31,751 nucleotides of DNA, from positions 1-31,751 of IMG/VR virus record IMGVR_UViG_3300021962_000400; one strand, written 5' to 3'. Made by a program: the position numbers and the translations under genes. The DNA comes from a virus. Every line of letters begins with the position of its first letter. Position 1 is the first letter of the stretch. Positions 3,795 through 21,378 of the stretch are shown piece by piece. A model generated the notes under the pieces. The model worked only from the letters and a program-made list of their open reading frames with translations, was not told the DNA's origin and did not search any database.

Positions 3795-3801
3795 GCATGG
3801 A

Positions 3802-3809
3802 TATAAATA
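3802..3809 (+). promoter_or_regulatory. T4-type late promoter (TATAAATA)
   Basis: The octamer is identical to the T4 late promoter -10 element read by the gp55 sigma factor with sliding-clamp activation. It lies just after a terminator and before a large structural-type gene. Transcription would start near 3816, so the in-frame ATG at 3797 lies upstream of the transcript and the ATG at 3836 must be used. Confidence 0.85.
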
Positions 3810-3835
3810 CTTCTACTGGAGTCTGTCTAAGTAAG

Positions 3836-5806: not shown

Positions 5807-5818
5807 AATACTAAAGGG

Positions 5819-5831
5819 GGGTTGACAACCC
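5819..5831 (+). promoter_or_regulatory. Hairpin containing a TTGACA -35-like box
   Basis: GGGTT and AACCC flank GAC, giving a 5-bp hairpin whose loop side contains TTGACA (5822-5827). No clean -10 box stands 16-18 bases downstream (only an A-rich TAAAAAT), so a promoter for the following oxygenase gene is possible but weak. There is no T-tract, so it is not a classical terminator. Confidence 0.35.
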
Positions 5832-5864
5832 TATCAATTTGATAAAAATAAATTATTTAAAATT

Positions 5865-6431
5865 ATGGAAGAACAAAATTTTATTAAAACTTATGAAAAT
5901 GTTTTATCAGAAGAATGCATTGAATTTCTTTTAGATAGGGTTAACAATCAAATAGTTTATGATCATAGGAGCGTTACGGCTCACTTACAAGATAAACAGT
6001 TTACTCTTGATCCTTTTTACCCTGTTTTAGCAAAAGACATTAATAATTTTCTAATTAATAATGCATTTGCAAATTATCTTGAAGAATTTCCATATCTTAA
6101 AAGTAGGAAAGATTGGTTTACGGGAACTGTACTTCTTCAAAAAACTTCTCCCAGTGAAGGATATCACACTTGGCATTGCGAAGATGGGTCATATAGTGAT
6201 GTTAGCAGAATGGTTGCTTGGATGATTTATCTAAATGATGTTGAAGAAGGTGGAGAAACTGAATTCTTATACCAAAGAATTAGAATTAAACCAAAGAAAA
6301 ACATGGCAGTGATTTGGCCAGGTTCTTTTACCCATCTTCATAGGGGTAATCCTCCTTTAAAGGGTGACAAATATATTTTAACTGGATGGTTTTCTCCCAC
6401 TCTTGGGATGAATACATTTACAATGGCTTGA
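5865..6431 (+). CDS. 2OG-Fe(II) oxygenase, prolyl-4-hydroxylase type
   Basis: This 188-residue protein has the double-stranded beta-helix pattern of 2-oxoglutarate dioxygenases. The iron triad is H104-x-E106 in YHTWHCEDG plus a distal His in SFTHLHRG (H157 or H159), with a basic 2OG-binding residue in KGDKYILTGW. The first motif is HxE rather than the common HxD. VAWMIYLNDVEEGGETEF between them is the typical core strand of the family. The substrate (protein proline, nucleotide or glycan) cannot be told. It is the first of six oxygenase genes in this window, is strongly A+T-rich, and its stop codon overlaps a consensus promoter for the next gene. Confidence 0.88.
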   Translation: MEEQNFIKTYENVLSEECIEFLLDRVNNQIVYDHRSVTAHLQDKQFTLDPFYPVLAKDINNFLINNAFANYLEEFPYLKSRKDWFTGTVLLQKTSPSEGYHTWHCEDGSYSDVSRMVAWMIYLNDVEEGGETEFLYQRIRIKPKKNMAVIWPGSFTHLHRGNPPLKGDKYILTGWFSPTLGMNTFTMA

Positions 6432-6456
6432 CAAGATTCTTTTTTATGAGTAGAAT
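6428..6456 (+). promoter_or_regulatory. Sigma70-type promoter TTGACA-17-TAGAAT
   Basis: TTGACA (6428-6433) and TAGAAT (6451-6456) are separated by 17 bases, near the bacterial consensus. The -35 box overlaps the stop codon of the oxygenase gene. It would drive the GIY-YIG gene and possibly the tRNA cluster, using the host polymerase early in infection. Confidence 0.7.
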
Positions 6457-6513
6457 CGCTTTGCTAGGGTTGATCTAGATCTTCTATATACCTTAGAGTT
6501 CTTTGAAATTCAT

Positions 6514-7008
6514 TTGAATGACGACCTTGAGAGAAAAAATGAGGGCGAAGGGGGAGCTTCTTCTGGCTCATGCTCCTATCCTAACCCTTGGATGTACGAT
6601 GGTCACCACTTTGAGTCTGATGACATTGGCGACAACTTCGGTTTTGTCTACAGGATTACAAATAATGCAACGGGAAAATCCTACATTGGTAGGAAGTACT
6701 TCTGGTCAAAACGAAAGCCTAGAACTAGCAGTAGTAATAGACAAAGAAGAGTTACGATTGAAAGTGACTGGAAGAAATACTACGGAAGTTGTCCAGAGCT
6801 TAAAGAAGATATTAGGCAAAGCGGTAGGGATGGATTTTCACGAGAAATTCTTTCTCTCCACGGAACCCCAGGAAGGGTAAACTACGAGGAGACTCGTCAA
6901 TTATTTCTTCATGATGTGTTGACGAGTGCCTTGACAGATGGCACTCCTGCATACTACAATAGTAATATCCTCGGTAGATACTACCGAAAGGATTATTTCA
7001 ACAAATAA
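6514..7008 (+). CDS. GIY-YIG nuclease-like protein
   Basis: The domain begins at PWMYDG and contains the two signature strands, GFVYRITN and SYIGRKYFW, in place of the canonical GIY and YIG. It also has a conserved-looking WKKYYGS turn and a later NYEE that could provide the catalytic Glu. The family is found in T4-like phages as small nucleases and in homing endonucleases. No ordinary ATG with a ribosome binding site is visible: the frame is open from 6454, with TTG at 6514 as the first usual start and ATG only at 6592, inside the conserved PWMYDG motif. I give TTG with low certainty. An ATG at 6518 opens another frame that lacks family features. It sits before a tRNA cluster, a common neighbourhood for phage nucleases. 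Confidence 0.7.
   Translation: MNDDLERKNEGEGGASSGSCSYPNPWMYDGHHFESDDIGDNFGFVYRITNNATGKSYIGRKYFWSKRKPRTSSSNRQRRVTIESDWKKYYGSCPELKEDIRQSGRDGFSREILSLHGTPGRVNYEETRQLFLHDVLTSALTDGTPAYYNSNILGRYYRKDYFNK
6931..6960 (+). promoter_or_regulatory. Sigma70-type promoter TTGACA-18-TACAAT before the tRNA genes
   Basis: TTGACA at 6931-6936 and TACAAT at 6955-6960 are separated by 18 bases, inside the end of the GIY-YIG gene. Transcription would start about 50 bases upstream of tRNA-Thr, so this is the likely promoter of the first tRNA trio. Confidence 0.6.
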
Positions 7009-7019
7009 ATATCACACAC

Positions 7020-7091
7020 GCCATTTTAGCTCAGTGGTAGAGCAACCGCCTTGTAAGCGGTAGGTCGTCAGTTCGAATCTGACATGTGGCT
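7020..7091 (+). tRNA. tRNA-Thr (anticodon UGU)
   Basis: The 72-base cloverleaf has a D arm with GCTCAGTGGTAGAGC, an anticodon loop CTTGTAA (UGU, reading ACA), and a T arm GTCAG-TTCGAAT-CTGAC. The acceptor stem GCCATTT/ATGTGGC carries one T-T mismatch and one G-T pair. CCA is not encoded. Confidence 0.93.
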
Positions 7092-7098
7092 CCTTCAT

Positions 7099-7170
7099 TC
7101 CTCTGTGGCGCAGCGGTAGCGCAGTTGACTGTTAATCAATGGGTCGCAAGTTCGAATCTTGCCAGGGGAG
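7099..7170 (+). tRNA. tRNA-Asn (anticodon GUU)
   Basis: The acceptor stem TCCTCTG/CAGGGGA is complete with one wobble, the anticodon loop is CTGTTAA (GUU), and the T arm is GCAAG-TTCGAAT-CTTGC. CCA is not encoded. It lies seven bases after tRNA-Thr, so the two are probably cut from one precursor. Confidence 0.93.
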
Positions 7171-7172
7171 TT

Positions 7173-7259
7173 GGAGAGTTGTCCGAGTGGTTTAAGGAGC
7201 AGCACTGGAAATGCTGTATGGGGGTAACTTCATCTAGGGTTCAAATCCCTAACTCTCCG
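7173..7259 (+). tRNA. tRNA-Ser (anticodon GGA)
   Basis: This 87-base class II tRNA has the acceptor GGAGAGT/ACTCTCC, an anticodon loop CTGGAAA (GGA), a long variable arm and a T loop TTCAAAT. CCA is not encoded. It begins two bases after tRNA-Asn, and its 3' end is only two bases from the next start codon. Confidence 0.94.
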
Positions 7260-7261
7260 TT

Positions 7262-7906
7262 ATGATCAAAAACTTATTTTCAATTCCAATTTATCATACT
7301 CATTTTGATTGTCCTTCTAATATTATGGAAGGTATGATGAGATATGCTGAGGAGTTTTACTACAAAAACCAGAAAGATATTGAAGGTTACGGTGGACTAA
7401 CTGGAGATCAAGATATACCAAAGTTCTTTCTTCTTCAGCACAATAAAGAGTTTTACTGGTTGAACTATGTAATCTCACAATCAATGAAAGACTATCTAAG
7501 TCAAATCTCTGATTTAGAATATAATATCTTTGTTCAAAAGGCATGGACTACAGTCTGTAATTCTCAGGAGGGAAAAACTTCTCACCACACTCATAGAGGG
7601 TCACACTTTAGTGCTGTTTATTATCTTAGAACAGAAGGAGAAGGCGGAGAACTAGCATTCAGTAATCTTGGAGTTTTAGATTCTATGCCTGTAACTTTGA
7701 GAGATGAATACTCATATTATAAAATCGATCCTCAAGTAGGAGACTTAATCATCTTTCCTTCTTCTATGCTCCATGGAGTCACAGATTTTTATGGTGAACA
7801 GTTTAGAGCATCTATTGTGTACGATATTTTTGTAACATCTACAGAAAATGTAGACGACCAGTATGAAAATGTTGTTACCTCTCCGTCCAAATGGATACAG
7901 ATATAG
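7262..7906 (+). CDS. 2OG-Fe(II) oxygenase, PF13759-like
   Basis: The 214-residue protein shows the pattern of the short phage/bacterial 2OG-Fe(II) oxygenase family: HHTHRGSHFSAVYYL (H109/H111) for the first iron ligand region, a core GGELAFSNLG, and LIIFPSSMLHGV with the distal His (H171), then R182 in FRASIVYDIF for 2OG binding. The substrate is unknown. The ATG lies two bases after the end of tRNA-Ser and has no ribosome binding site. After 3' processing of the tRNA the mRNA would be essentially leaderless. The gene is A+T-rich. It has the same architecture as the oxygenase at 28941. Confidence 0.85.
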   Translation: MIKNLFSIPIYHTHFDCPSNIMEGMMRYAEEFYYKNQKDIEGYGGLTGDQDIPKFFLLQHNKEFYWLNYVISQSMKDYLSQISDLEYNIFVQKAWTTVCNSQEGKTSHHTHRGSHFSAVYYLRTEGEGGELAFSNLGVLDSMPVTLRDEYSYYKIDPQVGDLIIFPSSMLHGVTDFYGEQFRASIVYDIFVTSTENVDDQYENVVTSPSKWIQI

Positions 7907-7908
7907 TC

Positions 7909-7916
7909 CTAAATAC
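7909..7916 (+). promoter_or_regulatory. Possible degenerate late promoter (CTAAATAC)
   Basis: CTAAATAC lies in the short gap before the gene at 7940. It resembles the T4-type late octamer at six of eight bases and matches a copy at 29532 before the tail-fibre genes. Evidence is by analogy only. Confidence 0.3.
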
Positions 7917-7939
7917 TAGAAAGATTGGACATATCTGGT

Positions 7940-8254
7940 ATGCTGTCAACACAGTATCGTCTTCGTCTTGAAGGTATCTGTAAGAAGATATCAAACAAAG
8001 AAGAGGTGAATCTTGAGGATATGATTTGGGCAGAGAAACTTGCCAAGTCATATACAACTGCAAGAGACTGGTTAAACAAAGCACGACGCCAAGCAGCGGG
8101 AGATATTCAAGAAGGAAGTATGGATGATTTTATGAATAGGATGGGACTAGGAGACCCCGACCCATCCAACCATAGTACGGGGTTTAAATCTGCAGATGAA
8201 ATTGTAGATTGGTTCCAAAGAGATAAACCTGATGACTGGAGACAGCGTGATTAA
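7940..8254 (+). CDS. Hypothetical protein, 104 aa
   Basis: The product begins MLSTQYRLRLEGICKKI and is a helical, charged protein ending in DWFQRDKPDDWRQRD; it has no catalytic motif that I recognise. The frame opens at a TTG (7925), but the ATG at 7940 gives a more natural N-terminus. Its stop overlaps the next start (TAATG). Small proteins of this type are common between conserved genes in T4-like cyanophages. Confidence 0.7.
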   Translation: MLSTQYRLRLEGICKKISNKEEVNLEDMIWAEKLAKSYTTARDWLNKARRQAAGDIQEGSMDDFMNRMGLGDPDPSNHSTGFKSADEIVDWFQRDKPDDWRQRD

Positions 8255-8820
8255 TGATTGCTCAAATTTTAGATAACCTTTTTGATTATGACTATATGGT
8301 GCAGGTTGAGAAGACTATGCTCCATCTTCCTGTAACTGCTATCAATGAGGCAAACGGTACTGGTTATCCTGCAGGGCAACATGGCACTCATAAATTATTT
8401 GGTGAAAATCTTTTTGAAAGAAGTTCGATCAATCATATAGTTAACTGGACTCCCAAGTGTGAGTGTTTCTTTAATATGTTCGCTCATATTGAGGAGCAGG
8501 TTGACTTTCCTCTTCTTTTAAATAGAATCGATTTCAACCTACAACACTCTTTTTGTGATGGTACATCCCATGTTGATGGAGATCCTGGAGATTACACCAT
8601 CATGTATATGGTGAATACTAAATGGGACTCTAAAGAATGGGGTGGTCAATTTCAAATTGTAAATGAAGACAATGAAGTTATAGAGGAACATGAATATGTT
8701 CCTGGTAGAGTTCTTATCTTCCCGTCTGAAATTCCTCACAGGGGTCTAGGACCACGCCATCCTTATGTGTATAGATATACTGTGGTCTGGCGCGTCAGAA
8801 AGTTAGAAGATGTGCTATAA
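8254..8820 (+). CDS. 2OG-Fe(II) oxygenase with HxD...H triad
   Basis: The 188-residue protein has the classical triad H106-x-D108 (TSHVDGD), distal H162 (EIPHRGLGP) and the 2OG-binding R174 (YRYTVVWRV). GRVLIFPSEIPHRG is the usual C-terminal strand of prolyl-hydroxylase-like enzymes. The substrate is unknown. The gene is coupled to the upstream gene by a TAATG overlap, and its end contains the extended -10 promoter that serves tRNA-Gly. Confidence 0.88.
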   Translation: MIAQILDNLFDYDYMVQVEKTMLHLPVTAINEANGTGYPAGQHGTHKLFGENLFERSSINHIVNWTPKCECFFNMFAHIEEQVDFPLLLNRIDFNLQHSFCDGTSHVDGDPGDYTIMYMVNTKWDSKEWGGQFQIVNEDNEVIEEHEYVPGRVLIFPSEIPHRGLGPRHPYVYRYTVVWRVRKLEDVL

Positions 8821-8821
8821 T
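8813..8821 (+). promoter_or_regulatory. Extended -10 promoter of tRNA-Gly (TGCTATAAT)
   Basis: A perfect TATAAT with the extended TGn lies across the end of the oxygenase gene. No good -35 box is present. The predicted transcript starts about 8828, three bases before the mature tRNA 5' end. Confidence 0.6.
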
Positions 8822-8830
8822 GTATCTATC

Positions 8831-8902
8831 GCGGGGTTAGTTCAGCGGTAGAACGCTATCCTTCCAAGTTAGATGTCGTCGGTTCGATTCCGATACCCCG
8901 CT
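8831..8902 (+). tRNA. tRNA-Gly (anticodon UCC)
   Basis: The acceptor GCGGGGT/ACCCCGC pairs fully, the anticodon loop is CTTCCAA (UCC, reading GGA), and the T arm is GTCGG-TTCGATT-CCGAT with a wobble. The anticodon stem has one T-T mismatch. CCA is not encoded. Confidence 0.92.
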
Positions 8903-8910
8903 TATTTAAT

Positions 8911-9441
8911 ATGACAAAACAAAGACCAAGCATTCTTGCAGTGGATAAAGCTTTATCTCCTGAAGATTTTAGAGAAGTATCCAATTTTGCTTACAATGCT
9001 TCTTATACTTATGGAGAGACGGACGAGGAAAAATTTAAACCAACTGGATTAGTTTCTGAGTTGGATCCAGATTGTGAACAAGATACAGAAATTGTTGACA
9101 TTCTAAATGGTATCGTTCTTGATAAGTTTCCAGAACTTGAAAGTTACGAATTATACAGAGCATATATTAATTGTTTTGCTCCTAGAGAAATAGCAAACTT
9201 TCATCAAGATTGTGAAGATGATGAAGATCAAATTACAATTCTTTTTTATGCAAATAAAATGTATAATGGACTAAATGATGGGGGAACTACAGAATTCTAT
9301 CTAGATCAAAAGATCATTGCTATTCCTCCAATTCCAAATACTCTTGTTAAATTTACTTCTTGGGTATTGCATAGAGCAACTCCTTTAGTTTCTGAACATC
9401 GTTTTACATATGCATTCAAATACCGTAAAGAAAATAATTGA
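8911..9441 (+). CDS. 2OG-Fe(II) oxygenase with HxD...H triad
   Basis: The 176-residue protein has H98-x-D100 (NFHQDCED), distal H154 (WVLHRATPL) and R164 (EHRFTYAFKY), the complete iron and 2OG site. It starts eight bases after tRNA-Gly without a visible ribosome binding site, and its 3' end overlaps the next oxygenase frame. It is A+T-rich. The order of oxygenase, tRNA, oxygenase, oxygenase, tRNA is repeated around it. The substrate is unknown. Confidence 0.87.
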   Translation: MTKQRPSILAVDKALSPEDFREVSNFAYNASYTYGETDEEKFKPTGLVSELDPDCEQDTEIVDILNGIVLDKFPELESYELYRAYINCFAPREIANFHQDCEDDEDQITILFYANKMYNGLNDGGTTEFYLDQKIIAIPPIPNTLVKFTSWVLHRATPLVSEHRFTYAFKYRKENN

Positions 9442-10009
9442 AGAGGAAAGGTATCATGTGGTAGATAATTTGTTTCTGCCAGATGTTATTGATGACTTGC
9501 GTGAGTATGCTCTCAATGCAGATGATCCAGATGATATCTACGAAGACTATTACTCACTTAACTTCTCTCCAGACCGCTTGCGGCATCCCCTTCTATCTGC
9601 TATAATTACAGGGTTGGAAACGAGGTTCCCATTCCTCGGTCGTTTTGACAGAGGTTGGGCATTCGTTTACGACAACAACGCCAACGGCGTTACCCCGCAT
9701 GCTGATCCAGCATGCTATAATGTGAATCTCTGGGTCACTCCAGATTCTTCTGTAGAAGATCCAGAGAAAAACGGTTTAATTCTTTATGATATTAAACCGC
9801 CTCCGACATGGACCTGGCGCGAGTATAATACGGATGTCAAGTTGATTAGGAAATATCTAGAGTACACTAACTCTAAGAAGACGATTATTCCTTATGCGTG
9901 TAATCGTCTTCTTATATTTAACTCTAAATACTTCCATGAAACCAATAAAGTTTCAATGAAACATGGTTCTGGAAATCGAAGAGTTAATTACACTTTTATG
10001 TTTTCGTGA
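9410..10009 (+). CDS. 2OG-Fe(II) oxygenase with HxD...H triad
   Basis: The 199-residue frame contains H97-x-D99 (VTPHADPA), a core strand NVNLWVTPD typical of phage P4H-like enzymes, distal H175 (SKYFHETNK) and an Arg pair, R189/R190. The start is unsure: the ATG at 9410 overlaps the previous gene by 32 bases, while GTG at 9458 has an AAGAGGAAAGG ribosome binding site six bases upstream and would begin at VVDNLFLPD, close to the usual start of such domains. The stop codon TGA overlaps the first bases of tRNA-Arg. The substrate is unknown. Confidence 0.87.
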   Translation: MHSNTVKKIIEEERYHVVDNLFLPDVIDDLREYALNADDPDDIYEDYYSLNFSPDRLRHPLLSAIITGLETRFPFLGRFDRGWAFVYDNNANGVTPHADPACYNVNLWVTPDSSVEDPEKNGLILYDIKPPPTWTWREYNTDVKLIRKYLEYTNSKKTIIPYACNRLLIFNSKYFHETNKVSMKHGSGNRRVNYTFMFS

Positions 10010-10084
10010 CTCAGTAGCTCAGTTGGATAGAGCATCTGCCTTCTAAGCAGTTGGTCGGGGGTTCAAGTCCCTCCTGAGTCGCCA
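10008..10084 (+). tRNA. tRNA-Arg (anticodon UCU), with encoded CCA
   Basis: The acceptor GACTCAG/CTGAGTC is perfect, the anticodon loop is CTTCTAA (UCU, reading AGA), and the T loop is TTCAAGT. This is the only one of the six tRNAs with CCA in the DNA (10082-10084). Its first two bases are part of the stop codon of the upstream oxygenase gene, and tRNA-Val follows without a single spacer base. Confidence 0.94.
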
Positions 10085-10156
10085 GGGAGATTAACTCAGC
10101 GGTAGAGTGGTTGCCTTACAAGCAATAAGTCACTGGTTCGAATCCAGTATTTCCCA
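10085..10156 (+). tRNA. tRNA-Val (anticodon UAC)
   Basis: The acceptor GGGAGAT/ATTTCCC pairs with one wobble, the anticodon loop is CTTACAA (UAC, reading GTA), and the T arm is ACTGG-TTCGAAT-CCAGT. CCA is not encoded. The discriminator base is the A of an ATG that opens a small frame. Confidence 0.94.
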
Positions 10157-11349: not shown

Positions 11350-11351
11350 TT

Positions 11352-11534: not shown

Positions 11535-12527
11535 ATGAGAGCATTAATTACAGGAATAACAGGACAGGACGGTTCGTACCTTGCCGAATTTCTTCTCCAA
11601 AAGGGGTATGAAGTTCACGGCATTGTACGCCGTTCTTCTTTAATTAATACGCATCGTATTGATCACATCTATAATAAAATCCATAAACATTATGGAGACA
11701 TGACTGATGCAGGTAACCTCATGAGTTTGATTCAAAAGATCAAACCTACTGAGGTGTATAACCTTGCTGCCATGAGTCATGTAAAGGTGTCTTTTGATAT
11801 GCCTGAGTATACGGGAGAAGTTGATGCTCTAGGAACCCTGCGTCTCCTAGAGGCTATTCGTTTATTGGAACATCCTTGTAAGTTCTATCAGGCATCCACA
11901 AGCGAACTGTATGGACTTGTTCAAGAGGTCCCTCAGAAAGAGACCACTCCTTTCTATCCTCGCTCACCATATGGTGTAGCAAAGATGTATGCATATTGGA
12001 TTGTTAAGAACTATCGTGAAGCGTATGGTATCCATGCTAGCAATGGCATACTTTTCAATCATGAGTCCCCACGGAGAGGTGAAACCTTCGTTACCCGTAA
12101 GATCACGAGAGGACTCTCACGCATCTCTAGTGGACTCCAAGATGTCCTAGAACTAGGCAATCTGGATGCTCAGCGTGATTGGGGACATGCATTAGATTAT
12201 GTTCGTGGTATGTGGATGATTGTTCAGCACGAAACTCCTGATGATTTTGTTCTTGCTACAGGTGAGATGCGTAGTGTTCGTGAGTTTGTTAACGAATCTG
12301 CATCTTACTTTGGATTCAATATTGAGTGGCGTGGAGAGGGTCTTGATGAAGTTGGATTCTGTAAGAATCTCAACAGAGTGATCGTTCGCGTAGACCCTAA
12401 ATACTACCGCCCAACAGAAGTAGAGCAACTACTTGGGGATGCAACAAAAGCAAAAACTGTGCTAGGATGGGAACCAGAATATAGTTTCCAAGATCTTGTA
12501 GAAGACATGTGTATTAACGGACAATGA
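11535..12527 (+). CDS. gmd: GDP-mannose 4,6-dehydratase
   Basis: This enzyme converts GDP-D-mannose to GDP-4-keto-6-deoxymannose, the first step towards GDP-L-fucose and other 6-deoxy sugars. It is an extended short-chain dehydrogenase: the NADP-binding glycine loop [12 protein letters not shown] lies at residues 7-18, RRSS follows the second strand, the catalytic Thr and Glu are in ASTSELYG, and the Tyr/Lys pair is in [28 protein letters not shown] and [17 protein letters not shown] are diagnostic for GMD. At 330 residues it is near the normal length. It opens an eleven-gene run of overlapping glycan genes and pairs with the GDP-fucose synthase at 13771. Confidence 0.97.
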
Positions 12528-13774
12528 GTAAATTTCACAGAATTGAAAAGTGCAGAGTATGTGGTAATGAACACCTGATCACAGTCTTGGATCTTGGTGA
12601 TCAATATCTTTCTGGCATTTTTCCCAAAGAGATCGATGAGGACATGTACAAAGGTCCTCTCACTCTCGTCAAGTGTGACGAGTCTAAAGGTGGATGTGGT
12701 CATGTTCAACTAGAACATACCTTTGATCTTCCTACCATGTATGGTGAAGAGTATGGTTATCGTTCTGGTCTGAACGGTAGCATGGTTCGTCACCTGCGTG
12801 GAAAGGCAGAGAAGATTATGCGTGATGTCAAGTTTAACTCTGGCGATATCGTAATTGATATTGCAGGTAATGATGGCACCTTCTTGGGGTTCTTCCCCCA
12901 TGATCTGCAACTCATGAGCATTGATCCCACCTCGAAAAAGTTTAGAGATTACATTCCTGAGAATGTAAATTATATTGCCGACTTCTTCTCTTCCGATGTT
13001 TATCGTGAGCGGTTCGGTAAGCAGAAAGCAAAGGTAGTTACATCGTTCTCGATGTTCTATGACCTTGAAGATCCCTGCGAGTTTGCCCGCCAGGTCCATG
13101 ACATCCTTGATCCTCGCGGAATCTGGGTGCTTGAGCAAAGTTATATGCCAACGATGCTGCGGGTCAATTCGTTTGACACAGTATGTCATGAGCATCTCTC
13201 CTACTATGGTATGAGACAACTCAAGTACATCATGGATAAGTCTGGATTCAAGATTGTTGATTTTGAATTCAATGATGTTAATGGTGGTAGTATCTCTGTA
13301 GTAGTAACTCCTTCTACCAACAGTGAGCGTAAGGAATGTACAGTAAAACTTACTGCTCTTATTGCCTCAGAGTTGGAAGACAAACTGGATACCGTTGAAC
13401 CTTGGGAAGCTTTTGCAGAGCGTATTAATGCCTGTAAGAAACAGTTCTGGGAAATCATGGACTTCTATCGTCGTAATGGTTCTAAGATCTGTGCCCTTGG
13501 TGCCAGCACTAAAGGAAATGTAACGCTGCAAACCTGGGAGATTGGTCCTAAAGATGTTGCCGCTGTTGGTGATGTTAATCCTGACAAAGACGGATCCTTT
13601 ACACCTGGAACTTGGATTCCTATTACTAGCGAAGAGAGTGTGCTGGAAAAAGAATATGATCTTCATATTGTTCTTCCCTGGCACTTTAGAGATTTCTTCC
13701 TGAAGAATGAAAAGTTTAAAGGTCGTCGGTTCTTATTCCCACTTCCCGAACCTGAAGTCGTAATTATTCCATGA
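12524..13774 (+). CDS. NDP-sugar C-methyltransferase (TylC3-like)
   Basis: The 416-residue protein has the three-part plan of sugar C-methyltransferases. First comes an N-terminal zinc-binding segment (CRVCGN and [10 protein letters not shown]), then a class I SAM domain with [15 protein letters not shown] as motif I and [10 protein letters not shown] after strand 2. The C-terminal domain contains [16 protein letters not shown] and [12 protein letters not shown], known from this family. It would add a methyl group to a carbon of a keto-deoxy sugar nucleotide, perhaps the product of GMD next door, giving a branched sugar. It is joined to gmd and to the GDP-fucose synthase gene by ATGA overlaps. 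Confidence 0.88.
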
Positions 13775-14724
13775 AACTGAGAACAATGCAGAAACACGCA
13801 AGAATTTTTGTCGCTGGTCATCGTGGTTTAGTTGGATCTGCCATTGTTCGCCGTCTTCAAGAAGAAGGTTATGAGAACATCATTACTAGAACTCGGCAGG
13901 AGCTTGATCTTATGGATCAGTTTGCTGTCGAAAAGTTCTTCAGGTCTGAAGGTATCGACTATGTGTTTGATGCTGCTGCTCGTGTCGGTGGTATCCATGC
14001 CAATGATACTTACTCGGCAGAGTTTATCTACCAGAACACTCAGATCCAAACCAACCTTATTCACTATGCCTGGAAGCATGGTGTACAAAAGTTTCTTTTC
14101 CTTGGAAGCGTATGTATCTACCCTAAGTTTGCACCGACTCCTGTAAAGGAAGAGTCTCTGATGTCTGGAGAACTGGAGCCTACCAACGATGCGTATGCTC
14201 TTGCTAAGATCCATGGCATCTACATGCTGAGGTCTTACTACAAGCAGTACGGGTTCAAGGGTGTCTCCCTGATGCCTGCCAATCTGTATGGTCCTAACGA
14301 TAACTTCCACCCCATGAACGGGCATGTGATCCCTGCTATGCTCCAGAAGTTCAACAACTGGACCGTAGGAGACGCTCCAGTGACCTGCTGGGGCACAGGC
14401 ACCCCTCGTCGTGAGTTTCTCTATGTTGATGACCTTGCAGACGCATGTCTCTTCGCTATGGAGAACTACGAGTCTGCAGAGTTGTTGAATGTTGGATCTG
14501 GTGAAGATGTGACCATTGCAGAACTTGCTAACATGGTCGCTAATGTAACTGGGTACACAGGGAAAATTGAGTGGGATACTTCTAAACCTGATGGCACTCC
14601 CAAGCGTCCTCTTGATTACTCCAAACTTTTAGATAAAGGTTGGAAACCAAAGTACAATCTTCAAGATGGTCTACGCGAAACCTATAAGTGGTTTATTGAA
14701 AACACTGATATTCAAACGAGATGA
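13771..14724 (+). CDS. fcl: GDP-L-fucose synthase (epimerase/reductase)
   Basis: This enzyme finishes GDP-L-fucose from the GMD product by 3,5-epimerisation and 4-reduction. Visible features are the NADP loop VAGHRGLVGSAIV, the catalytic Ser and Cys in LGSVCIYPK, the Tyr/Lys pair in YALAKIHGIYM, and NLYGPNDNFHPMNGHVIPA with the active-site His. WGTGTPRREFLYVDDLADA is diagnostic. The second Ser of the usual GSSCIYP motif is Val here, but the catalytic residues remain. An inner ATG at 13786 is possible; the ATG at 13771 gives an ATGA overlap with the upstream gene. At 317 residues it is the normal size. Confidence 0.96.
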   Translation: MKLRTMQKHARIFVAGHRGLVGSAIVRRLQEEGYENIITRTRQELDLMDQFAVEKFFRSEGIDYVFDAAARVGGIHANDTYSAEFIYQNTQIQTNLIHYAWKHGVQKFLFLGSVCIYPKFAPTPVKEESLMSGELEPTNDAYALAKIHGIYMLRSYYKQYGFKGVSLMPANLYGPNDNFHPMNGHVIPAMLQKFNNWTVGDAPVTCWGTGTPRREFLYVDDLADACLFAMENYESAELLNVGSGEDVTIAELANMVANVTGYTGKIEWDTSKPDGTPKRPLDYSKLLDKGWKPKYNLQDGLRETYKWFIENTDIQTR

Positions 14725-15530
14725 TTGGTATTAACTATGTCGGCAAGATGAAAGAGCGTCTTGCCAATCAAATGTTTCAGTATGCTGCTGTAAAGGGTAT
14801 CGCTGCTAATCGGGGGTTCAACTACTGTGTTCCCCCATCAAATTATAAGAACAAAGCAGATGAATGGAATGAGCATCAACTGTTTGTTCCCTTTGAACTT
14901 TCAAGTTTAAGTGCTCTTCAGGTTCAGTCTATTGATCAAGATCGTCCCATTGTCAGGGAAGAGTCTTTTGAGTTTGATGAGAATCTCTTTAACAATTGTC
15001 CAGACTTTGTAAGTATATTTGGTTTCTTCCAGTCAGAAAAATACTTCAAGCACATTAGAGAAGATCTTCTCCTTGACTTTAAATTCAAGGATGAGTATCT
15101 GGAACCATGTAAGAAGATGATTACGGATGTCACTAATCCCATTGCATTACATGTTCGTCGTACTGACTACGCCAATTATTCTCACCATCCTATTTGTGAT
15201 ATAAATTACTATAAGGAAGCGTTGGCAAGGTTCGACTCTAATCGTGAAGTGATTATTTTCTCTGATGATCCAGAGTGGTGCCTCCAAGAAGAAATGTTCG
15301 ATAACGACAGGTTCTTAGTTTCCGAAACAAATGATCAGTATCTTGATCTTTGTATGATGTCTCTCTGCAGTGATTTTATTATTGCTAATAGTTCTTTTAG
15401 TTGGTGGGGAGCATGGCTCTGCACTAATCCGAACAAGAGAGTAGTCGCACCATCTAAATGGTTTGGTCCTCCTCTGAATCAAATCAATGACACTAAAGAT
15501 CTGTATTGCGAAGGTTGGGAAGTGGTATGA
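14721..15530 (+). CDS. GT11 alpha-1,2-fucosyltransferase
   Basis: This is a family 11 glycosyltransferase that moves fucose from GDP-L-fucose to the O-2 of a galactose-type acceptor. Diagnostic motifs are LANQMFQYAA at residues 14-23, HVRRTDY at 144-150 (the GDP-fucose binding HxRRxD), and ANSSFSWWGAWL at 222-233. The usual Gly-Leu-Gly before NQ is replaced by Arg-Leu-Ala, a small deviation. The gene overlaps fcl, the source of its donor, by ATGA and is followed at once by the GT6 gene, which suggests that the fucosylated product is the acceptor of the next enzyme. Confidence 0.93.
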   Translation: MIGINYVGKMKERLANQMFQYAAVKGIAANRGFNYCVPPSNYKNKADEWNEHQLFVPFELSSLSALQVQSIDQDRPIVREESFEFDENLFNNCPDFVSIFGFFQSEKYFKHIREDLLLDFKFKDEYLEPCKKMITDVTNPIALHVRRTDYANYSHHPICDINYYKEALARFDSNREVIIFSDDPEWCLQEEMFDNDRFLVSETNDQYLDLCMMSLCSDFIIANSSFSWWGAWLCTNPNKRVVAPSKWFGPPLNQINDTKDLYCEGWEVV

Positions 15531-16234
15531 AAAATGCAACAGTTGCAATAATTTTTATTGGTACTAATAAGTATCTTAATTTTTTTCCTGGATACTATGA
15601 GTCTTGTGAAAAATATTTGTTTCCCGAACTTCGTAAGCAATACTTTATCTTTACCGATGGTGAAATTGTAGGGGATGCATTACCTGACCATATAACAGTC
15701 CTGAAAATTCCTCATAAAGAATGGCCCTCTATTACCTTAGAGAGGTTCCATACGATCTTGTTAGCACAAGAAGAGTTGGAGGAGCACGATTGGTTGTTAT
15801 TCCTTGATGCTGATATGAAAGTCAATCAGGAAATTTCTCCTGAAGAATTCTTCAAGTTCGGCAAAGATTATATTGCTGTCCATCATCCATGCCATTACAA
15901 TACTGGAACTGGGACCTTTGAGCGGCGTCTTGAATCTGAAGCATGTGTGACTGGAGAACAACAGTCTTACTATCAAGGATGTCTATGGGGAGGTAGGATT
16001 GAGTCTGTAATTCCTATGATGAAACTCTTGAGAGATAGAGTTGACAAAGACTATGAAAATGGTATAATTGCCTTATGGCATGATGAGAGTCATTTGAATA
16101 GATTCTTTATTGAAAATCAGGATGAGGTTAATGCTCTACCTCCTGACTATGCATTCCCCGAATGTTTTCCAAACTATCCTTACGAGCAAAAAATTATTCA
16201 CCTAGCCAAAGATAATTCATCTTATCAAGTATGA
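15527..16234 (+). CDS. GT6 glycosyltransferase (blood-group A/B transferase family)
   Basis: Family 6 enzymes add Gal or GalNAc in alpha-1,3 linkage to galactose and include the human ABO transferases. The 235-residue protein is only the catalytic domain and has the GT6 landmarks in order: an N-terminal strand AIIFIGTN, FFPGYYESCEKYLFP, the metal motif DAD at 94-96 in LFLDADMK, YYQGCLWGG at 148-156 (equivalent to the donor-selecting YYxGxxxGG), WHDESHLNRF at 184-193, and LPPDYAFPE. Bacterial members often carry NxN at the metal site; here DxD is kept, as in vertebrates. The four donor-specificity positions read QGCL, so Gal versus GalNAc cannot be told. The start at 15527 gives an ATGA overlap with the GT11 gene. 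Confidence 0.9.
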   Translation: MKNATVAIIFIGTNKYLNFFPGYYESCEKYLFPELRKQYFIFTDGEIVGDALPDHITVLKIPHKEWPSITLERFHTILLAQEELEEHDWLLFLDADMKVNQEISPEEFFKFGKDYIAVHHPCHYNTGTGTFERRLESEACVTGEQQSYYQGCLWGGRIESVIPMMKLLRDRVDKDYENGIIALWHDESHLNRFFIENQDEVNALPPDYAFPECFPNYPYEQKIIHLAKDNSSYQV

Positions 16235-16932
16235 GCGACCCTAATGCCTGGCAAATGCCAACCTTTTACACTGCTGAAAAAGCAAGTGAAATCCGTTATA
16301 AATTCCCTGGACTTGAACTGGTAAGTCATCAGAATTTTTCTCAGTGTTATCAGGATATGTTTGTCCTGTGTATGACTGATGGAAGACCGAGGGGAACATT
16401 CGTTGAGATTGGATCTGGTCATCCTATTATTTCTAACAATACTGCTCTGCTTGAGTCTCGTTTTGAATGGGATGGTATTGGATTTGAAATTAAAGAACAT
16501 GAGTCTGATCTTTATAACAAACATCGTAGAGCAAAGGTTGCTGTAGGTGATGCAACTACTGCTGACTTCGATGAACTGTTTGAGGAAGTTGGTCTTGGTC
16601 CTACCTTTGATTACCTTCAGGTAGATTGTGAACCTTCTTCTGTTACCTTTGAGGCACTGAAGCGTATCGATCTTAATAAGTATAAGTTCGCCACCATCAC
16701 CTTCGAGCATGACTCTTACAACGATGGTCCTGAAGTCCGTGATGCTTCTCGTGAGTATCTTGAGTCATTCGGTTATGTTCTTATTGCTGACAATATTTCC
16801 GTTGACGATCAGCATCCTTTCGAAGATTGGTGGGCTCATCCTGATCTTGTCCCTTCTCATACTATCGATGCTATGAAGTGTGTGACTGGAGAAACTAAGA
16901 AAGCAGAAGATTACATGCTGGGGAGAGTCTGA
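16231..16932 (+). CDS. FkbM-type methyltransferase
   Basis: The 233-residue protein has the FkbM pattern: SQCYQDMFVL before the SAM domain, then GTFVEIGSGHPIISNNTALLE as motif I and WDGIGFEI. Later strands are FDYLQVDCEPSS and FATITFEHDSY, with a histidine and aspartate near the expected metal/catalytic region. Such enzymes often O-methylate sugars or small molecules. In this cluster a role in capping or decorating the glycan is likely. It is joined to both neighbours by overlaps of one to four bases. Confidence 0.85.
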   Translation: MSDPNAWQMPTFYTAEKASEIRYKFPGLELVSHQNFSQCYQDMFVLCMTDGRPRGTFVEIGSGHPIISNNTALLESRFEWDGIGFEIKEHESDLYNKHRRAKVAVGDATTADFDELFEEVGLGPTFDYLQVDCEPSSVTFEALKRIDLNKYKFATITFEHDSYNDGPEVRDASREYLESFGYVLIADNISVDDQHPFEDWWAHPDLVPSHTIDAMKCVTGETKKAEDYMLGRV

Positions 16933-17855
16933 TGCGTTGTGTTCTCTGGGGATATCCTCTTCACTCTGACACATATTCATATGTGCATGAAGGATTTCAA
17001 AAAGCATTAGAGAGAGCAGGTCACGAAGTCTTTTGGTTCCATGACAATGAGTATCCTGAAGACTTTGATTATGATGACTGCGTGTTCTTTACAGAAGGGT
17101 ATGCTGATAAAAATATTCCTTTGAGGAAGAACAGCACATATTATGTGCATGTATGTGTGAATCCTGAGAAGTATCTTGGCAATGTCAAGAAACTGATTGA
17201 CATGCGTTACCATCAAGATAAGATGGATAATGATAACTATGAATTCGATCACGATGTCACCCAGTTTGAAGAACTGGACACTGGCGTATGTGTTGATCGT
17301 GCCATGTCAAAGGAAAAAGGATATGATATCTCTTACTTAGCGTGGGCAACTGATATTCTTCCAGAAGAATTTAATGAAGACTGGGTAAACATCCAGAGAG
17401 AGAATACTTTCTATTTTATCGGTAGTATTTCTCCCGATGGTAGATTTATGAACGCACATCTTATTAAAGAGTTTGCTCAGTTATGTGCTAAAATTGGTGT
17501 GGATACTGTATGGTCTAACCCTTGGACTAACCCTATTGATGGTGAAGTCATGAGAGGATTGATGCAGAAATCTTTTCTTTCTCCCGACCTTAGAAATGAA
17601 ACTCATAAATTGTGGGGAACTAAAACTTGTAGAGTATTCAAGACTATGAGTTATGGTAATCTTGGACTTACAAACTCCCCCAAACTAGCAGAGTTTGCTG
17701 GTCCTGATGTTATTTGTAGGGAGAATATTTTAGAGTTGTTTGAAGAAGGTCTTCGTAATAAAGACGACAAAGAACTCATTCTTAGACAGATGCGTCATAC
17801 TAGAGAGCATCATACTTATGTCAATCGTATCAACGGACTTCTTAAATTACTATGA
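16932..17855 (+). CDS. Probable GT-B glycosyltransferase with CgeB-like C-terminus
   Basis: The 307-residue protein begins like a GT-B enzyme (MRCVLWGYPLHSDTYSYVHEGFQKALERAGHE, described here only by its ends: MRCVLWGY and ALERAGHEV). Its C-terminus matches the plan of the glycosyl transferase family 1-like CgeB domain: KTCRVFKTMSYGNLGLTNS, a segment ENILELFEEGL and MRHTREHHTYVNRI. The donor is unknown. The middle section (GVCVDRAMSKEKGYD) is not familiar. It is linked to the FkbM gene by a TGATG overlap and to the next transferase by ATGA. Confidence 0.7.
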   Translation: MRCVLWGYPLHSDTYSYVHEGFQKALERAGHEVFWFHDNEYPEDFDYDDCVFFTEGYADKNIPLRKNSTYYVHVCVNPEKYLGNVKKLIDMRYHQDKMDNDNYEFDHDVTQFEELDTGVCVDRAMSKEKGYDISYLAWATDILPEEFNEDWVNIQRENTFYFIGSISPDGRFMNAHLIKEFAQLCAKIGVDTVWSNPWTNPIDGEVMRGLMQKSFLSPDLRNETHKLWGTKTCRVFKTMSYGNLGLTNSPKLAEFAGPDVICRENILELFEEGLRNKDDKELILRQMRHTREHHTYVNRINGLLKLL

Positions 17856-18691
17856 CTAAACTGAGTTTTGGATTCATCGTTGGTGGCGATGATAGTTACT
17901 ATAAGAATTTGATGAGGGCTTGTGAATCCCTTGAGAGGATCGAACAAGATCATGAAATTGTTATCCTTGATATGGATGATCGGTTGGATATCGATGATCC
18001 TAAAGTAAAGATTGTCAAGGCAAATGCTGATGCTATTCGTAATGAGGATGATCGTAACTGGTTTCAACCACACATTTGGGCGGAGCGTTATAATGTCTTC
18101 AAGCATGTAGAAACTGACTACTGCATCTATCTTGATACCGATTGTGTAGTTGTCAATGATCGTGTTGATCAATTGATTGAAGAGGCACAAGATGATTTCT
18201 TGATTGCCCGTCACTGGTGGGTGCCTACCCTAGAAGATTATATCCGTAAAGTTCAAGTAGATAAGACTGGACTTGGAAAATATTTTCCAGAGGATCTTAG
18301 TACCTATGACTATGCTGCGTCGGGAGCATTCCTTTTTCAGAAGGGTAAGCATGATAATTTGTTTACTCGTTACATGGAAATCTTTAATGACATCTTTGGT
18401 GATGGTGGATTGCATGATGGTGTCACAGACGAGCTTGTTCTCTGTCTTGCCATGAACGAAGTTGGCGGATATAAATTTACTAACGGTGCATTCAATCATT
18501 GTGCTGCGGCAACTCAACAAGACATGAAACTTGTTGATGGTATTTGGTATGGTAAGAATCCTCAGGAAGATGAATACGAAAAAGTGTTTGCCTTCCATGC
18601 AGCATACCAAAACATTCCATCACTTATTGCACATAGCCCTGGATTTGTTAATCAAATTAAAGAGACGATGTATTGGGAGACTTACAGATGA
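17852..18691 (+). CDS. GT-A fold glycosyltransferase
   Basis: The 279-residue protein has the features of a metal-dependent GT-A enzyme: an N-terminal strand LSFGFIVGGDD, EIVILDMDD, and the DxD motif in YCIYLDTDCVVV. It continues with a core SGAFLFQKG and DELVLCLAMNE that resemble family 8/27-like folds. The donor and acceptor are unknown. Both ends overlap neighbouring transferase genes by four bases. Confidence 0.8.
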   Translation: MTKLSFGFIVGGDDSYYKNLMRACESLERIEQDHEIVILDMDDRLDIDDPKVKIVKANADAIRNEDDRNWFQPHIWAERYNVFKHVETDYCIYLDTDCVVVNDRVDQLIEEAQDDFLIARHWWVPTLEDYIRKVQVDKTGLGKYFPEDLSTYDYAASGAFLFQKGKHDNLFTRYMEIFNDIFGDGGLHDGVTDELVLCLAMNEVGGYKFTNGAFNHCAAATQQDMKLVDGIWYGKNPQEDEYEKVFAFHAAYQNIPSLIAHSPGFVNQIKETMYWETYR

Positions 18692-19650
18692 AAATTGCTT
18701 TGATTGGTCCTGGCATTATGCAGATTCCGCCTGATGGGTGGGGTGCTGTAGAGATGCTTATCTGGGATTACACCATGATCCTTAGAGACTTGGGTCATCG
18801 TGTTGAAATCATTAACACTCCCGACAGGGAACTAATCAAATTTGAAGTTGCTCACGGAAAGTATGACATTGTTCACCTTCATTATGATGTTTTCCATGAC
18901 ATCATTGATGACCTGGCTCCTTTATGCGGAGCACTGATCGTCTCTAGTCATTATCCATATGTTAATACTCCACATATGTGGGGTAGAGATGGTTATGGAC
19001 CCATCGCTCAAAAAATTGCTGCTAATAGAAAGCATCATATTTTCTGTTCATCTCAGAAAGATATTGATACCTGGATTAGTCTTGGTGCTAATCCTAATCG
19101 TGTCTGGTTGAGTAAACTAGGAGTTCGCCCCGAACCTTATAAGTTTGATGAGTTTGCTAGTTGGGATAGAACTCTTTGCTTCTCTCAGATTGTAGACCGT
19201 AAGCGTCAGTATCTCCTAGAGAAAATTGATAGCGTTGACTTTATGGGTCGCATGGAGTTTGGTGGTAAGTTTGATAAGAGGAATAAGAACTATAAGGGAG
19301 AAGTCGTTAGAGAAAAACTCAATGAGTACATTACTTGCTATTCAAACATTGCTCTCTTGAGTGAAGTTGAGAATACCACTCCTCTTGTTATTAAAGAGGG
19401 ATTGATTTGTGGACTTGGTGTTGTTTGTTCGGAAGCAGTTGCTCCTGAACTTGACACTTCTAAACCTTGGATTGATGTAATCCCAGAAAGCAAAATAAAT
19501 AACCTTGAATATGTTCTTGAGACAATCGAGAACAATAAAAAAGTATCTAAGCAGCATAGAAAAGAGATCAGAGAATACGGCATTTACGAATTCGGTCTTG
19601 AAAACATTCTTGCTTATGAATACATTCCGAAGTTGCAGTCGTTACTATGA
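18688..19650 (+). CDS. GT4-like glycosyltransferase, copy 1 of a tandem pair
   Basis: The 320-residue protein begins MKIALIGPGIMQIPPDGWG, the N-terminal Rossmann motif of GT-B transferases with the GWGAVE loop, then YDIVHLHYD. The C-terminal nucleotide-binding half has NTTPLVIKEGLICGLGVVCSE, the Glu-rich site that binds the donor diphosphate. It is clearly paralogous to the next gene: both share PP(D/V)GWGAVExLIWDY, HxHYD and VIPESKI. The start at 18688 gives an ATGA overlap. The donor sugar is unknown. Confidence 0.86.
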   Translation: MKIALIGPGIMQIPPDGWGAVEMLIWDYTMILRDLGHRVEIINTPDRELIKFEVAHGKYDIVHLHYDVFHDIIDDLAPLCGALIVSSHYPYVNTPHMWGRDGYGPIAQKIAANRKHHIFCSSQKDIDTWISLGANPNRVWLSKLGVRPEPYKFDEFASWDRTLCFSQIVDRKRQYLLEKIDSVDFMGRMEFGGKFDKRNKNYKGEVVREKLNEYITCYSNIALLSEVENTTPLVIKEGLICGLGVVCSEAVAPELDTSKPWIDVIPESKINNLEYVLETIENNKKVSKQHRKEIREYGIYEFGLENILAYEYIPKLQSLL

Positions 19651-20600
19651 GATTCTCTATCGTTGGTCCCGCCACTCCTATCCCTCCCGTAGGTTGGGGA
19701 GCAGTAGAGAGTCTTATCTGGGACTACAAACTTACCTTGGAGAAGTTAGGTCATGAAGTTGACATCATCAATGTCTCAGATCCTAGAGAGATCATCAAGA
19801 GAATCAATGCGTTTCGCCCTGATTTCGTGCATATTCATTATGACGACTGGGTTGTTCTCTATCCTTATGTGCAATATCCTTGTGCGTGTACCACCCACTT
19901 TGCCTACATCGAACGCCCAGACAAGATGAATGGGTATGGGCAGATCTTCGGTCACTTCCAACGGACTAAACCGAATGTCTTCTGCCTCTCCGAAGGCATC
20001 AAGAAAGCGTATCAATTCTTTGGTGATATCCCAGAAGAGAAACTTGCTATCGTTCCTAATGGTGTAAACCTAGATCTCTTCCGCACCACGGATGAACCAG
20101 AGTTCCCTGACCGTAGTATCTACCTTGCCAAGATTGACTACCGTAAGCGTCAGCATAAGTTCCAGTCCATCGACAGTCTGTTCTTTGCTGGTAACATTGC
20201 TGACAAGAGGTTCAATGCTAACAAAAACTATCTCGGTGAATGGAAGAAAGAATATCTCCATGACTATCTGACTGACTATGGTAACCTTGTGCTCCTGTCT
20301 GATGGTGAGGCACACTCTCTGGTTATCATGGAAGCATTTGCTTCTGGTCTCGGTGTTGTGGTCAGTGAGTTTGCTACAGCAAACCTGGATCTTGATCGTG
20401 AGTTTATTACAGTTATTCCAGAATCAAAGATTGATGATGTGGAATATGTTGAGTATGCTATAATCAAGAACAGGGAGTATTCAGTCTCCCATCGGGAAGA
20501 GATCCTAGAGTATGCTAAAGAGTTTGATTGGACTAATGTCCTGCAAAACCATTACCTACCTAATGTGAACGAAGTGATTGCTAAGCATGGACAAAAATAA
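19647..20600 (+). CDS. GT4-like glycosyltransferase, copy 2 of a tandem pair
   Basis: The 317-residue protein repeats the plan of the upstream gene: MRFSIVGPATPIPPVGWG, FVHIHYDDW, VPNGVNLDLF and the donor-binding segment HSLVIMEAFASGLGVVVSE. The VPNGV(D/N) element, typical of family 4, is retained here and is lost in copy 1. Tandem duplication followed by divergence is the simplest explanation. The two enzymes may add successive sugars. The end overlaps the GT25 gene by 14 bases. Confidence 0.88.
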   Translation: MRFSIVGPATPIPPVGWGAVESLIWDYKLTLEKLGHEVDIINVSDPREIIKRINAFRPDFVHIHYDDWVVLYPYVQYPCACTTHFAYIERPDKMNGYGQIFGHFQRTKPNVFCLSEGIKKAYQFFGDIPEEKLAIVPNGVNLDLFRTTDEPEFPDRSIYLAKIDYRKRQHKFQSIDSLFFAGNIADKRFNANKNYLGEWKKEYLHDYLTDYGNLVLLSDGEAHSLVIMEAFASGLGVVVSEFATANLDLDREFITVIPESKIDDVEYVEYAIIKNREYSVSHREEILEYAKEFDWTNVLQNHYLPNVNEVIAKHGQK

Positions 20601-21378
20601 ATCTGCACCAAAACTCAAAGACATTCCTCATATCTATTGGTTGAACTTAGACGATAAAACAGATCGTCGTAAGTTTATGGAAGATCAATTTGCATATTGG
20701 CAAATTGAAAAACATACTAGGATCTCTGCCTATGACGGTCGTCATGATGACCTGAGTGATATTATTGCTGGTAAATATCCAGACAATATGTCATCGGGTG
20801 AGATTGGTTGTGTAACTTCTCACCTCAAAGCAATTCAACATTGGTTGGAAACTTCCACTGATGATTATGCTATAATGATGGAAGATGATTGCGATCTAGA
20901 AGTGGTCAAGCATTGGCCATTTTCTTGGAAAGATTTCTTTCGCCATGCACCTGCTGCATGGGATTGTCTCCAGATTGCAATCATCAACCCTGCGATGCCT
21001 GTCATGCAGATGCATTATCGCTTCGTAAATGACTTTTCAACAGCTGCCTATGTCATTAATCGCAGGTATGGTCATAAACTTCTCGATCTTTATACTAAGA
21101 ATGGGAAGTACAAACTAGATGGTAGAATTAAACCACGCGCTGTTGCTGATGATCTTCTCTACAACAGTGGTCTGACCTATGCCATGCCAATCTTAATGTA
21201 TAAGATTGCTCTTGGGTCAGACATTCATGACATGCATATCGATGTGTTCCATCGTAATTGTCATGATGCCCTTTGGAATTTCTGGAGGAACGATGCTAAC
21301 ATGGTTGAAGATTGGAATCAGTTCTTCGATCTCAATCCTTACCTTGGTCGGTTACCCCCTGGTTTTGAAGGGAAGTAA
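20587..21378 (+). CDS. GT25-family glycosyltransferase
   Basis: The 263-residue protein shows the GT25 (LgtB/LgtE-type) pattern. IPHIYWLNLDDKTDRR lies near the start, MSSGEIGCVTSHLKAIQHW is in the middle, and the acidic donor/metal motif is MMEDDCDLE. Family members are often beta-1,4- or beta-1,3-galactosyltransferases of lipooligosaccharide. An ATG at 20587 is taken as the start; a TTG at 20578 is in frame. It is the last gene of the sugar cluster; a late promoter follows five bases after its stop. Confidence 0.85.
   Translation: MDKNKSAPKLKDIPHIYWLNLDDKTDRRKFMEDQFAYWQIEKHTRISAYDGRHDDLSDIIAGKYPDNMSSGEIGCVTSHLKAIQHWLETSTDDYAIMMEDDCDLEVVKHWPFSWKDFFRHAPAAWDCLQIAIINPAMPVMQMHYRFVNDFSTAAYVINRRYGHKLLDLYTKNGKYKLDGRIKPRAVADDLLYNSGLTYAMPILMYKIALGSDIHDMHIDVFHRNCHDALWNFWRNDANMVEDWNQFFDLNPYLGRLPPGFEGK

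What the first reader, a model, noticed from the sequence alone, without database searches (positions are those of the whole stretch)
5865..10009. Five 2OG-Fe(II) oxygenase genes interleaved with tRNA genes; a sixth at 28941
Genes at 5865, 7262, 8254, 8911 and 9410, plus 28941, have visible iron triads and are different from one another (P4H-like and PF13759-like). A count of six within 32 kb is high even for a cyanophage. They are mostly A+T-rich and mixed with tRNAs, which suggests a hot spot for gene gain. Possible roles include hydroxylation of virion or ribosomal proteins, DNA/RNA base modification or glycan modification; none can be decided from sequence.
Basis: partly seen in the sequence, partly recalled or inferred. 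Interest (0 to 1): 0.65.

Follow-up and report, generated by a model that had tools for sequence, protein, structure and literature searches.

The report
Oxygenase gene cassette in a cyanophage
A virus of marine cyanobacteria carries six small iron-enzyme genes, five packed among transfer-RNA genes; such sets are usual in these viruses, but three or four of these genes form a long-lived, ordered cassette next to sugar-making genes, and two of the six have an unusual three-histidine metal site.

Summary
The six genes are real. Five match 2OG-Fe(II) oxygenase profiles; the sixth (9410) has the motif, and its predicted fold (pLDDT 93) matches such enzymes. Six tRNA genes lie among them. The claim that the count is high even for a cyanophage fails: 15 cyanophages picked by a core gene alone carry 1-16 such genes (median 9), and 10 of 15 have an equally dense 32-kb stretch. 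S-SCSM1 is published with 24.

'Iron triads' needs correcting. Four genes have HxD/E...H. The two PF13759-type genes (7262, 28941) have HxH...H, as do 88 of 102 cyanophage relatives; the same change inactivates human prolyl 4-hydroxylase.

'Hot spot of gene gain' is half right. 2OG genes do crowd around tRNA genes (40 of 220 within 1 kb; 8.4 expected). But 8254-8911-9410 (C-D-E), often with 7262 upstream, keep their order and strand in all 50 contigs that hold the three. Thirty-one of those have no tRNA there. All 31 that extend far enough have the GDP-mannose dehydratase gene downstream. Ligands are invariant and dN/dS is low. The tRNAs and gene 5865 are the mobile part.

Substrates are unknown; protein side-chain hydroxylation is my best guess. 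New member of a known kind.

The parts
5865..6431 (+). Gene A: P4H-like 2OG oxygenase, PF13640, ligands H104-x-E106...H159, K169
   Evidence: best PDB sequence match Bacillus-type prolyl 4-hydroxylase 3itq/5hv0, E 1e-8. No orthologue in the related contigs except the 100% identical one
6514..7008 (+). SegE-type GIY-YIG homing endonuclease; conserved at this place in most related contigs
   Evidence: PF19835 E 3e-52
7020..7260 (+). tRNA-Thr, tRNA-Asn, tRNA-Ser
   Evidence: number and kind vary or are absent in relatives
7262..7906 (+). Gene B: PF13759-type 2OG-oxygenase-like protein with H109-x-H111...H171, R182 (three-histidine site)
   Evidence: PF13759 E 3e-16; all four residues invariant in 16 distinct orthologues
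7925..8254 (+). T4-GC49/phrog_507, conserved cyanophage protein of unknown function; present here in only part of the related contigs
8254..8820 (+). Gene C: PF13640-type oxygenase, H106-x-D108...H162, R174
   Evidence: weak match to EGLN prolyl hydroxylases
8831..8902 (+). tRNA-Gly between C and D; found there in only 3 of 50 related contigs
8911..9441 (+). Gene D: PF13640-type oxygenase, H98-x-D100...H154, R164; overlaps gene E by 32 bases
9410..10009 (+). Gene E: divergent oxygenase without Pfam match, H97-x-D99...H176, R191
   Evidence: AlphaFold2 pLDDT 93.2, Foldseek to HygX/PHD2
10008..10156 (+). tRNA-Arg, tRNA-Val
11535..21378 (+). Glycan cluster (GDP-mannose 4,6-dehydratase, C-methyltransferase, epimerase, GT11, GT6, further glycosyltransferases, GT25); its first gene lies downstream of C-D-E in all 31 relatives that reach far enough
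28941..29531 (+). Gene F: PF13759-type protein, H115-x-H117...H173, R184; between psbD/28285 and tail-fibre genes
   Evidence: closest relatives scattered in other cyanophages

Best explanation
The six genes are members of several old cyanophage families of 2OG-Fe(II)-type oxygenases, of which most T4-like cyanophages carry several to two dozen. C, D and E (8254, 8911, 9410), usually with B (7262) just upstream, form a stable, closely packed cassette between nrdB/SegE and a fucose-type glycan cluster in one lineage of uncultivated cyanophages; tRNA genes, GC49 and gene A (5865) come and go around and inside it. Most likely mechanism: C, D and E are made together, each binds Fe(II) through HxD...H and 2-oxoglutarate through an arginine, and each hydroxylates a macromolecule during infection, most likely a protein side chain on the virion or in the host (about 0.4). 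Shown: family and fold, invariant ligands, purifying selection, conserved order, gene overlap. Inferred: metal and 2OG binding, hydroxylation, co-expression. Guessed: the substrate. For B and F (three histidines) even the type of reaction is open.
For: Pfam and PHROG matches; model and Foldseek for E; ligands present in all four PF13640-type genes and in 122-124 of 124 relatives, invariant in the cassette orthologues; dN/dS medians B 0.12, C 0.21, D 0.28, E 0.13; C-D-E in the same order and strand in 50 of 50 contigs holding all three, 31 without tRNA, dehydratase gene downstream in 31 of 31; D and E overlap, and C and D overlap or abut in most relatives; weak sequence similarity of A to prolyl 4-hydroxylases and C to EGLN; base rates; published 2OG-rich cyanophages (PMC9602691, PMC9964418).
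Against: No substrate, product or expression evidence. The best structural matches of E include a carbohydrate-acting enzyme (HygX) as well as protein hydroxylases, so the fold does not choose between substrates. No collagen-like or clear hydroxylation-substrate protein was found in the window or neighbours. The 50 contigs are one lineage, partly near-identical, and were chosen for holding C, D and E, so gene order may reflect descent as well as function.
Confidence: 0.72

Rival explanations
1. The cassette tailors the phage-encoded surface sugar: C, D, E (and B) oxidise or hydroxylate sugar or glycan intermediates made by the adjacent GDP-mannose dehydratase/C-methyltransferase/glycosyltransferase cluster.
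For: Dehydratase gene downstream of C-D-E in 31 of 31 loci that reach far enough; best Foldseek match of E is HygX, which acts on an aminoglycoside, with KanJ also listed. Precedent from general knowledge: KdoO hydroxylates Kdo in lipopolysaccharide.
Against: In 22 cultured cyanophages 2OG genes are not nearer to sugar epimerase genes than chance (p about 0.2), and 16 of 22 have 2OG genes but no such epimerase. The link is within one lineage.
Confidence: 0.2
2. Plain gene-gain hot spot: unrelated oxygenase genes collected next to tRNA genes by homing endonucleases, each useful alone or not at all.
For: SegE endonuclease and tRNAs present; 2OG genes crowd near tRNAs; each protein is closest to a different phage locus, none to its neighbour; gene A and the tRNAs are not conserved.
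Against: C-D-E order kept in 50 of 50 contigs, 31 without tRNAs, with low dN/dS.
Confidence: 0.2
3. The enzymes act as a sink or switch for 2-oxoglutarate and so on NtcA-driven expression (Sullivan et al. 2010), not through a special substrate.
For: Proposed in PMC3037559 on the number of 2OG genes and NtcA sites.
Against: Does not explain why six different families with separate substrate-side sequences are kept, nor why three stay in a fixed order.
Confidence: 0.07
4. DNA or RNA repair or modification, AlkB-like or base-hydroxylating.
For: Relatives lie next to uvsY/uvsX in some cyanophages (PMC2984593; S-SSM5 and S-RIM4); AlkB-type ABH2 is among the fold matches of E, low in the list.
Against: No AlkB-family profile match for any of the six at E up to 0.1; nearest solved relatives by sequence are protein hydroxylases.
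Confidence: 0.08

Closest known systems
2OG-Fe(II) oxygenase set of cyanophage S-SCSM1 (24 genes, PMC9602691) and S-CREM1 (10 genes, PMC9964418)
   Same: Many small, mutually divergent PF13640 and PF13759 genes in a T4-like cyanophage
   Different: B-C-D-E in fixed order next to a GDP-mannose dehydratase cluster is not described there; D- and E-type genes have few relatives in cultured phages
tRNA-associated hot spots of T4-like cyanophages (Sullivan et al. 2010, PMC3037559)
   Same: Flexible genes, tRNAs and mobile endonucleases together; near psbA and other points
   Different: Here part of the array is stable in order and also present without tRNAs
Synechococcus phages Sf-FS3 and RN05-S
   Same: Same layout: nrdB, then tRNAs mixed with 2OG genes, then a sugar-nucleotide/glycosyltransferase cluster; Sf-FS3 holds A-like (40%) and B-like (34%) proteins there
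   Different: Other oxygenases at the place; no close D or E relative
Prolyl 4-hydroxylases / EGLN (PF13640)
   Same: A: catalytic-half similarity to bacterial P4H and PLOD3; C and D: weak similarity to EGLN
   Different: Only the catalytic half aligns; activity untested
PDB 2rg4 and 3bvc, bacterial PF13759 proteins of unknown function
   Same: B and F match them and share the HxH...H...R pattern
   Different: Phage proteins; similar over the core only

Membership tests
PF13640 2OG-Fe(II) oxygenases | Profile score above curated cut-off | tested here: met
   A 49.2, C 32.4, D 28.2 bits against 27; E has no match
PF13640 2OG-Fe(II) oxygenases | HxD/E...H iron ligands and distal Arg/Lys for 2OG | tested here: met
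   A HxE/H/K, C, D and E HxD/H/R; kept in relatives
2OG-Fe(II) oxygenase fold (gene E) | Double-stranded beta-helix fold | tested here: met
   pLDDT 93.2, Foldseek best matches 2OG oxygenases
PF13759 putative 2OG-Fe(II) oxygenases | Profile score above cut-off | tested here: met
   B 59.9, F 67.9 bits against 27
Canonical 2-His-1-carboxylate 2OG oxygenases (B and F) | Asp or Glu at the second ligand | tested here: not met
   His111 in B and His117 in F; column His in 88, Asp in 11, Glu in 2, Ser in 1 of the 102-row family alignment; HxH aligns over HxD
Canonical 2-His-1-carboxylate 2OG oxygenases (B and F) | Fold of gene B | tested here: inconclusive
   AlphaFold2 pLDDT 51.3
Prolyl 4-hydroxylase | Hydroxylates peptidyl proline | not testable with these tools
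   Sequence similarity only
AlkB (PF13532) | Profile match | tested here: not met
   No AlkB-family match for any of the six at E up to 0.1
tRNA-linked gene-gain hot spot | Gene content and order turn over while flanks stay | tested here: inconclusive
   Met for tRNAs, GC49 and gene A; not met for C-D-E

The most novel reading that the evidence does not exclude
B-C-D-E is a dedicated multi-step modification pathway: three carboxylate-type oxygenases and one three-histidine PF13759 enzyme act in turn on one phage or host product linked to the adjacent fucose-type glycan cluster, and the three-histidine PF13759 enzymes, widespread in cyanophages, carry out a reaction other than standard hydroxylation.
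Probability: 0.1. Interest if true: 0.7.

Novelty: new member of a known kind. Interest (0 to 1): 0.32.

Why it matters
2OG oxygenases are among the most numerous accessory genes of marine cyanophages, yet the papers read here report no tested function for any of them. A fixed cassette with invariant ligands and a linked glycan cluster is a better target than a scattered gene. The three-histidine pattern warns that most PF13759-type members, a large share of the annotated set, should not be assumed to be ordinary hydroxylases.

Tried and rejected
Collagen-like or strongly proline-rich substrate proteins in the window and the larger phage stretches then held: none convincing. Link of 2OG genes to sugar-nucleotide epimerases in 22 cultured phages: not significant. 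Recent tandem duplication as the source of the array: rejected, since none of the six is closest to another window gene. Cellular relatives of E in one genome per species: none found, with a scan limited to two short peptide patterns. AlphaFold2 of B: unusable, pLDDT 51. F as the orthologue of the 2OG gene after psbD in S-SCSM1: only 24% identity, not supported. Tail-fibre link: within 10 kb of the GC346 fibre gene 70 of 220 against 30.9 +- 7.4 expected, but no excess within 2 kb, so regional only. Papers on characterised phage 2OG hydroxylases or on PF13759 chemistry: none found in the held library.
Full report
What is there. The window is a 31,751-base IMG/VR virus fragment from a T4-like cyanophage: nrdB (1430), psbA (25520), psbD (26770), a glycan cluster (11535-21378) and tail-fibre genes (29567, 30400). 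Its genes are 100% identical to part of a larger IMG/VR contig, IMGVR_UViG_3300021960_000053. The six named ORFs exist as stated. Pfam assigns A (5865), C (8254) and D (8911) to PF13640 and B (7262) and F (28941) to PF13759. E (9410) has no Pfam match, but an AlphaFold2 model from 18 relatives (pLDDT 93.2) matches 2OG oxygenases in the PDB (HygX, PHD2, P. putida P4H; E about 1e-7). Six tRNA genes are interleaved. A SegE-type endonuclease (6514) and the conserved protein T4-GC49 (7925) also lie in the array.

Iron ligands. A has H104-x-E106...H159/K169; C, D and E have HxD...H/R; B and F have HxH...H/R. Across 220 homologous places in 22 cyanophages plus the window, the PF13640-type set (124 proteins) has His at the first ligand in 124, Asp or Glu at the second in 123 and His at the third in 124; the PF13759-type set (102 proteins) has His in 88, Asp in 11, Glu in 2 and Ser in 1 at the second position, with the other two His nearly invariant. 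Profile-profile alignment lays HxH over HxD, and the bacterial PF13759 proteins in the PDB also read HxH. In human prolyl 4-hydroxylase the Asp-to-His change abolishes activity (PMC2767507). So 'visible iron triads' holds for four genes in the usual sense; B and F carry a three-histidine pattern whose chemistry is unknown. In B all three His and the Arg are invariant in 16 distinct orthologues, which argues against simple loss of function.

Is the number unusual? No. I picked 15 cyanophages from a list of records sharing the core gene T4-GC49, one per species, without regard to 2OG genes. They hold 1-16 places (median 9) by the two Pfam profiles. With the same yardstick the window has 5; 10 of the 15 have a 31.75-kb stretch with at least 5, and 6 have at least 4 in 4.15 kb, as the window does. 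About 7.5% of random 31.75-kb stretches reach 5. Seven phages related to the window reach up to 9. S-SCSM1 is published with 24 such genes and S-CREM1 with 10.

Hot spot or cassette? Both. 40 of 220 2OG genes lie within 1 kb of a tRNA gene, against 8.4 +- 3.5 under circular shifts (related genomes are not independent, and any flexible gene might behave so). tRNA-linked hot spots were described in 2010 (PMC3037559). However, scans of IMG/VR for E and C found 50 contigs that hold C, D and E; in all 50 the three are in the same order and strand within 5 kb, 27 also have B, 31 have no tRNA in the locus, tRNA inside C-E occurs in 3, and the GDP-mannose dehydratase gene lies downstream in all 31 loci that extend far enough. 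E in these goes down to about 48% identity. dN/dS medians are 0.12-0.28. In the window D and E overlap by 32 bases, and in most relatives without the tRNA-Gly C and D overlap or abut. Gene A has an orthologue only in the identical contig. So the stable element is [B]-C-D-E; tRNAs, GC49 and A are the changing part. Caveats: the contigs are one lineage, some are near-identical, and they were chosen for holding the three genes. More distant E relatives (36-46%) occur without C and D, some of them near psbA/psbD.

Origin. Each of A, B, C, F has its nearest relatives in scattered loci of other cyanophages, and D and E have few relatives among cultured phages. None of the six is closest to a neighbour; only C and D share a 25-member clade. 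This speaks against recent tandem duplication. Four of six are A+T-rich (32-34% G+C against 41% for the window); C and E are less so.

Function. Nothing here shows a substrate. A resembles bacterial prolyl 4-hydroxylases and the PLOD3 lysyl hydroxylase in its catalytic half, C and D weakly resemble EGLN, and E resembles both sugar-acting (HygX, KanJ) and protein-acting enzymes in fold. I rate protein side-chain hydroxylation first (about 0.4), tailoring of the adjacent glycan second (0.2); AlkB-like repair and 2OG depletion are less likely. A general link between 2OG genes and sugar genes was tested and not found.

Verdict. The genes are real and probably active, the density is ordinary for this virus group, and the hot-spot story should be replaced by a stable cassette within a changing neighbourhood. 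The three-histidine pattern of PF13759 is the point most worth a biochemist's time.

Noticed in passing
7262-7906, 28941-29531 and 102 cyanophage relatives: PF13759-type proteins mostly carry HxH...H instead of HxD...H (88 of 102); no paper on this chemistry was found in the held library.
   Followed up: partly
3797-5806: 669-aa lysine/proline-rich, apparently disordered protein (PVKQPVKQPV..., RPTNSGTQSKPTNSGTQS repeats) directly upstream of the P4H-like gene A; not found at half length or more in related contigs other than the identical one. A possible but untested substrate.
   Followed up: partly
14721-16234 and 20578-21378: Glycan cluster with GT11 (fucosyltransferase type), GT6 (blood-group type) and GT25 glycosyltransferases behind a GDP-mannose dehydratase and a C-methyltransferase.
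   Followed up: no
28285-28944: phrog_591 protein of unknown function with an HEGWH motif (zinc-peptidase-like) and an apparent signal sequence, between psbD and gene F.
   Followed up: no
24222-25334: Tryptophan-halogenase-like protein of only 370 aa, shorter than the 458-position Pfam profile.
   Followed up: no
25388-25482: PhotoRC-II cis-regulatory RNA upstream of psbA (Rfam RF01717, 57 bits).
   Followed up: yes
PHROG families phrog_274, phrog_1644, phrog_447 (genes 8254, 8911, 9410, 6514): PHROG labels 'DNA endonuclease V' (phrog_274) and 'minor coat protein' (phrog_1644) fall on 2OG-oxygenase-like proteins, and 'NAD synthetase' (phrog_447) on a SegE endonuclease: probable misannotations.
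   Followed up: partly
L005 (Sf-CH1b) 5487-11887; S-RSM4 89,336-95,006; S-SSM5 34,202-38,267: Other cyanophages have tandem arrays of four to seven 2OG genes in the region of tail-fibre genes.
   Followed up: partly
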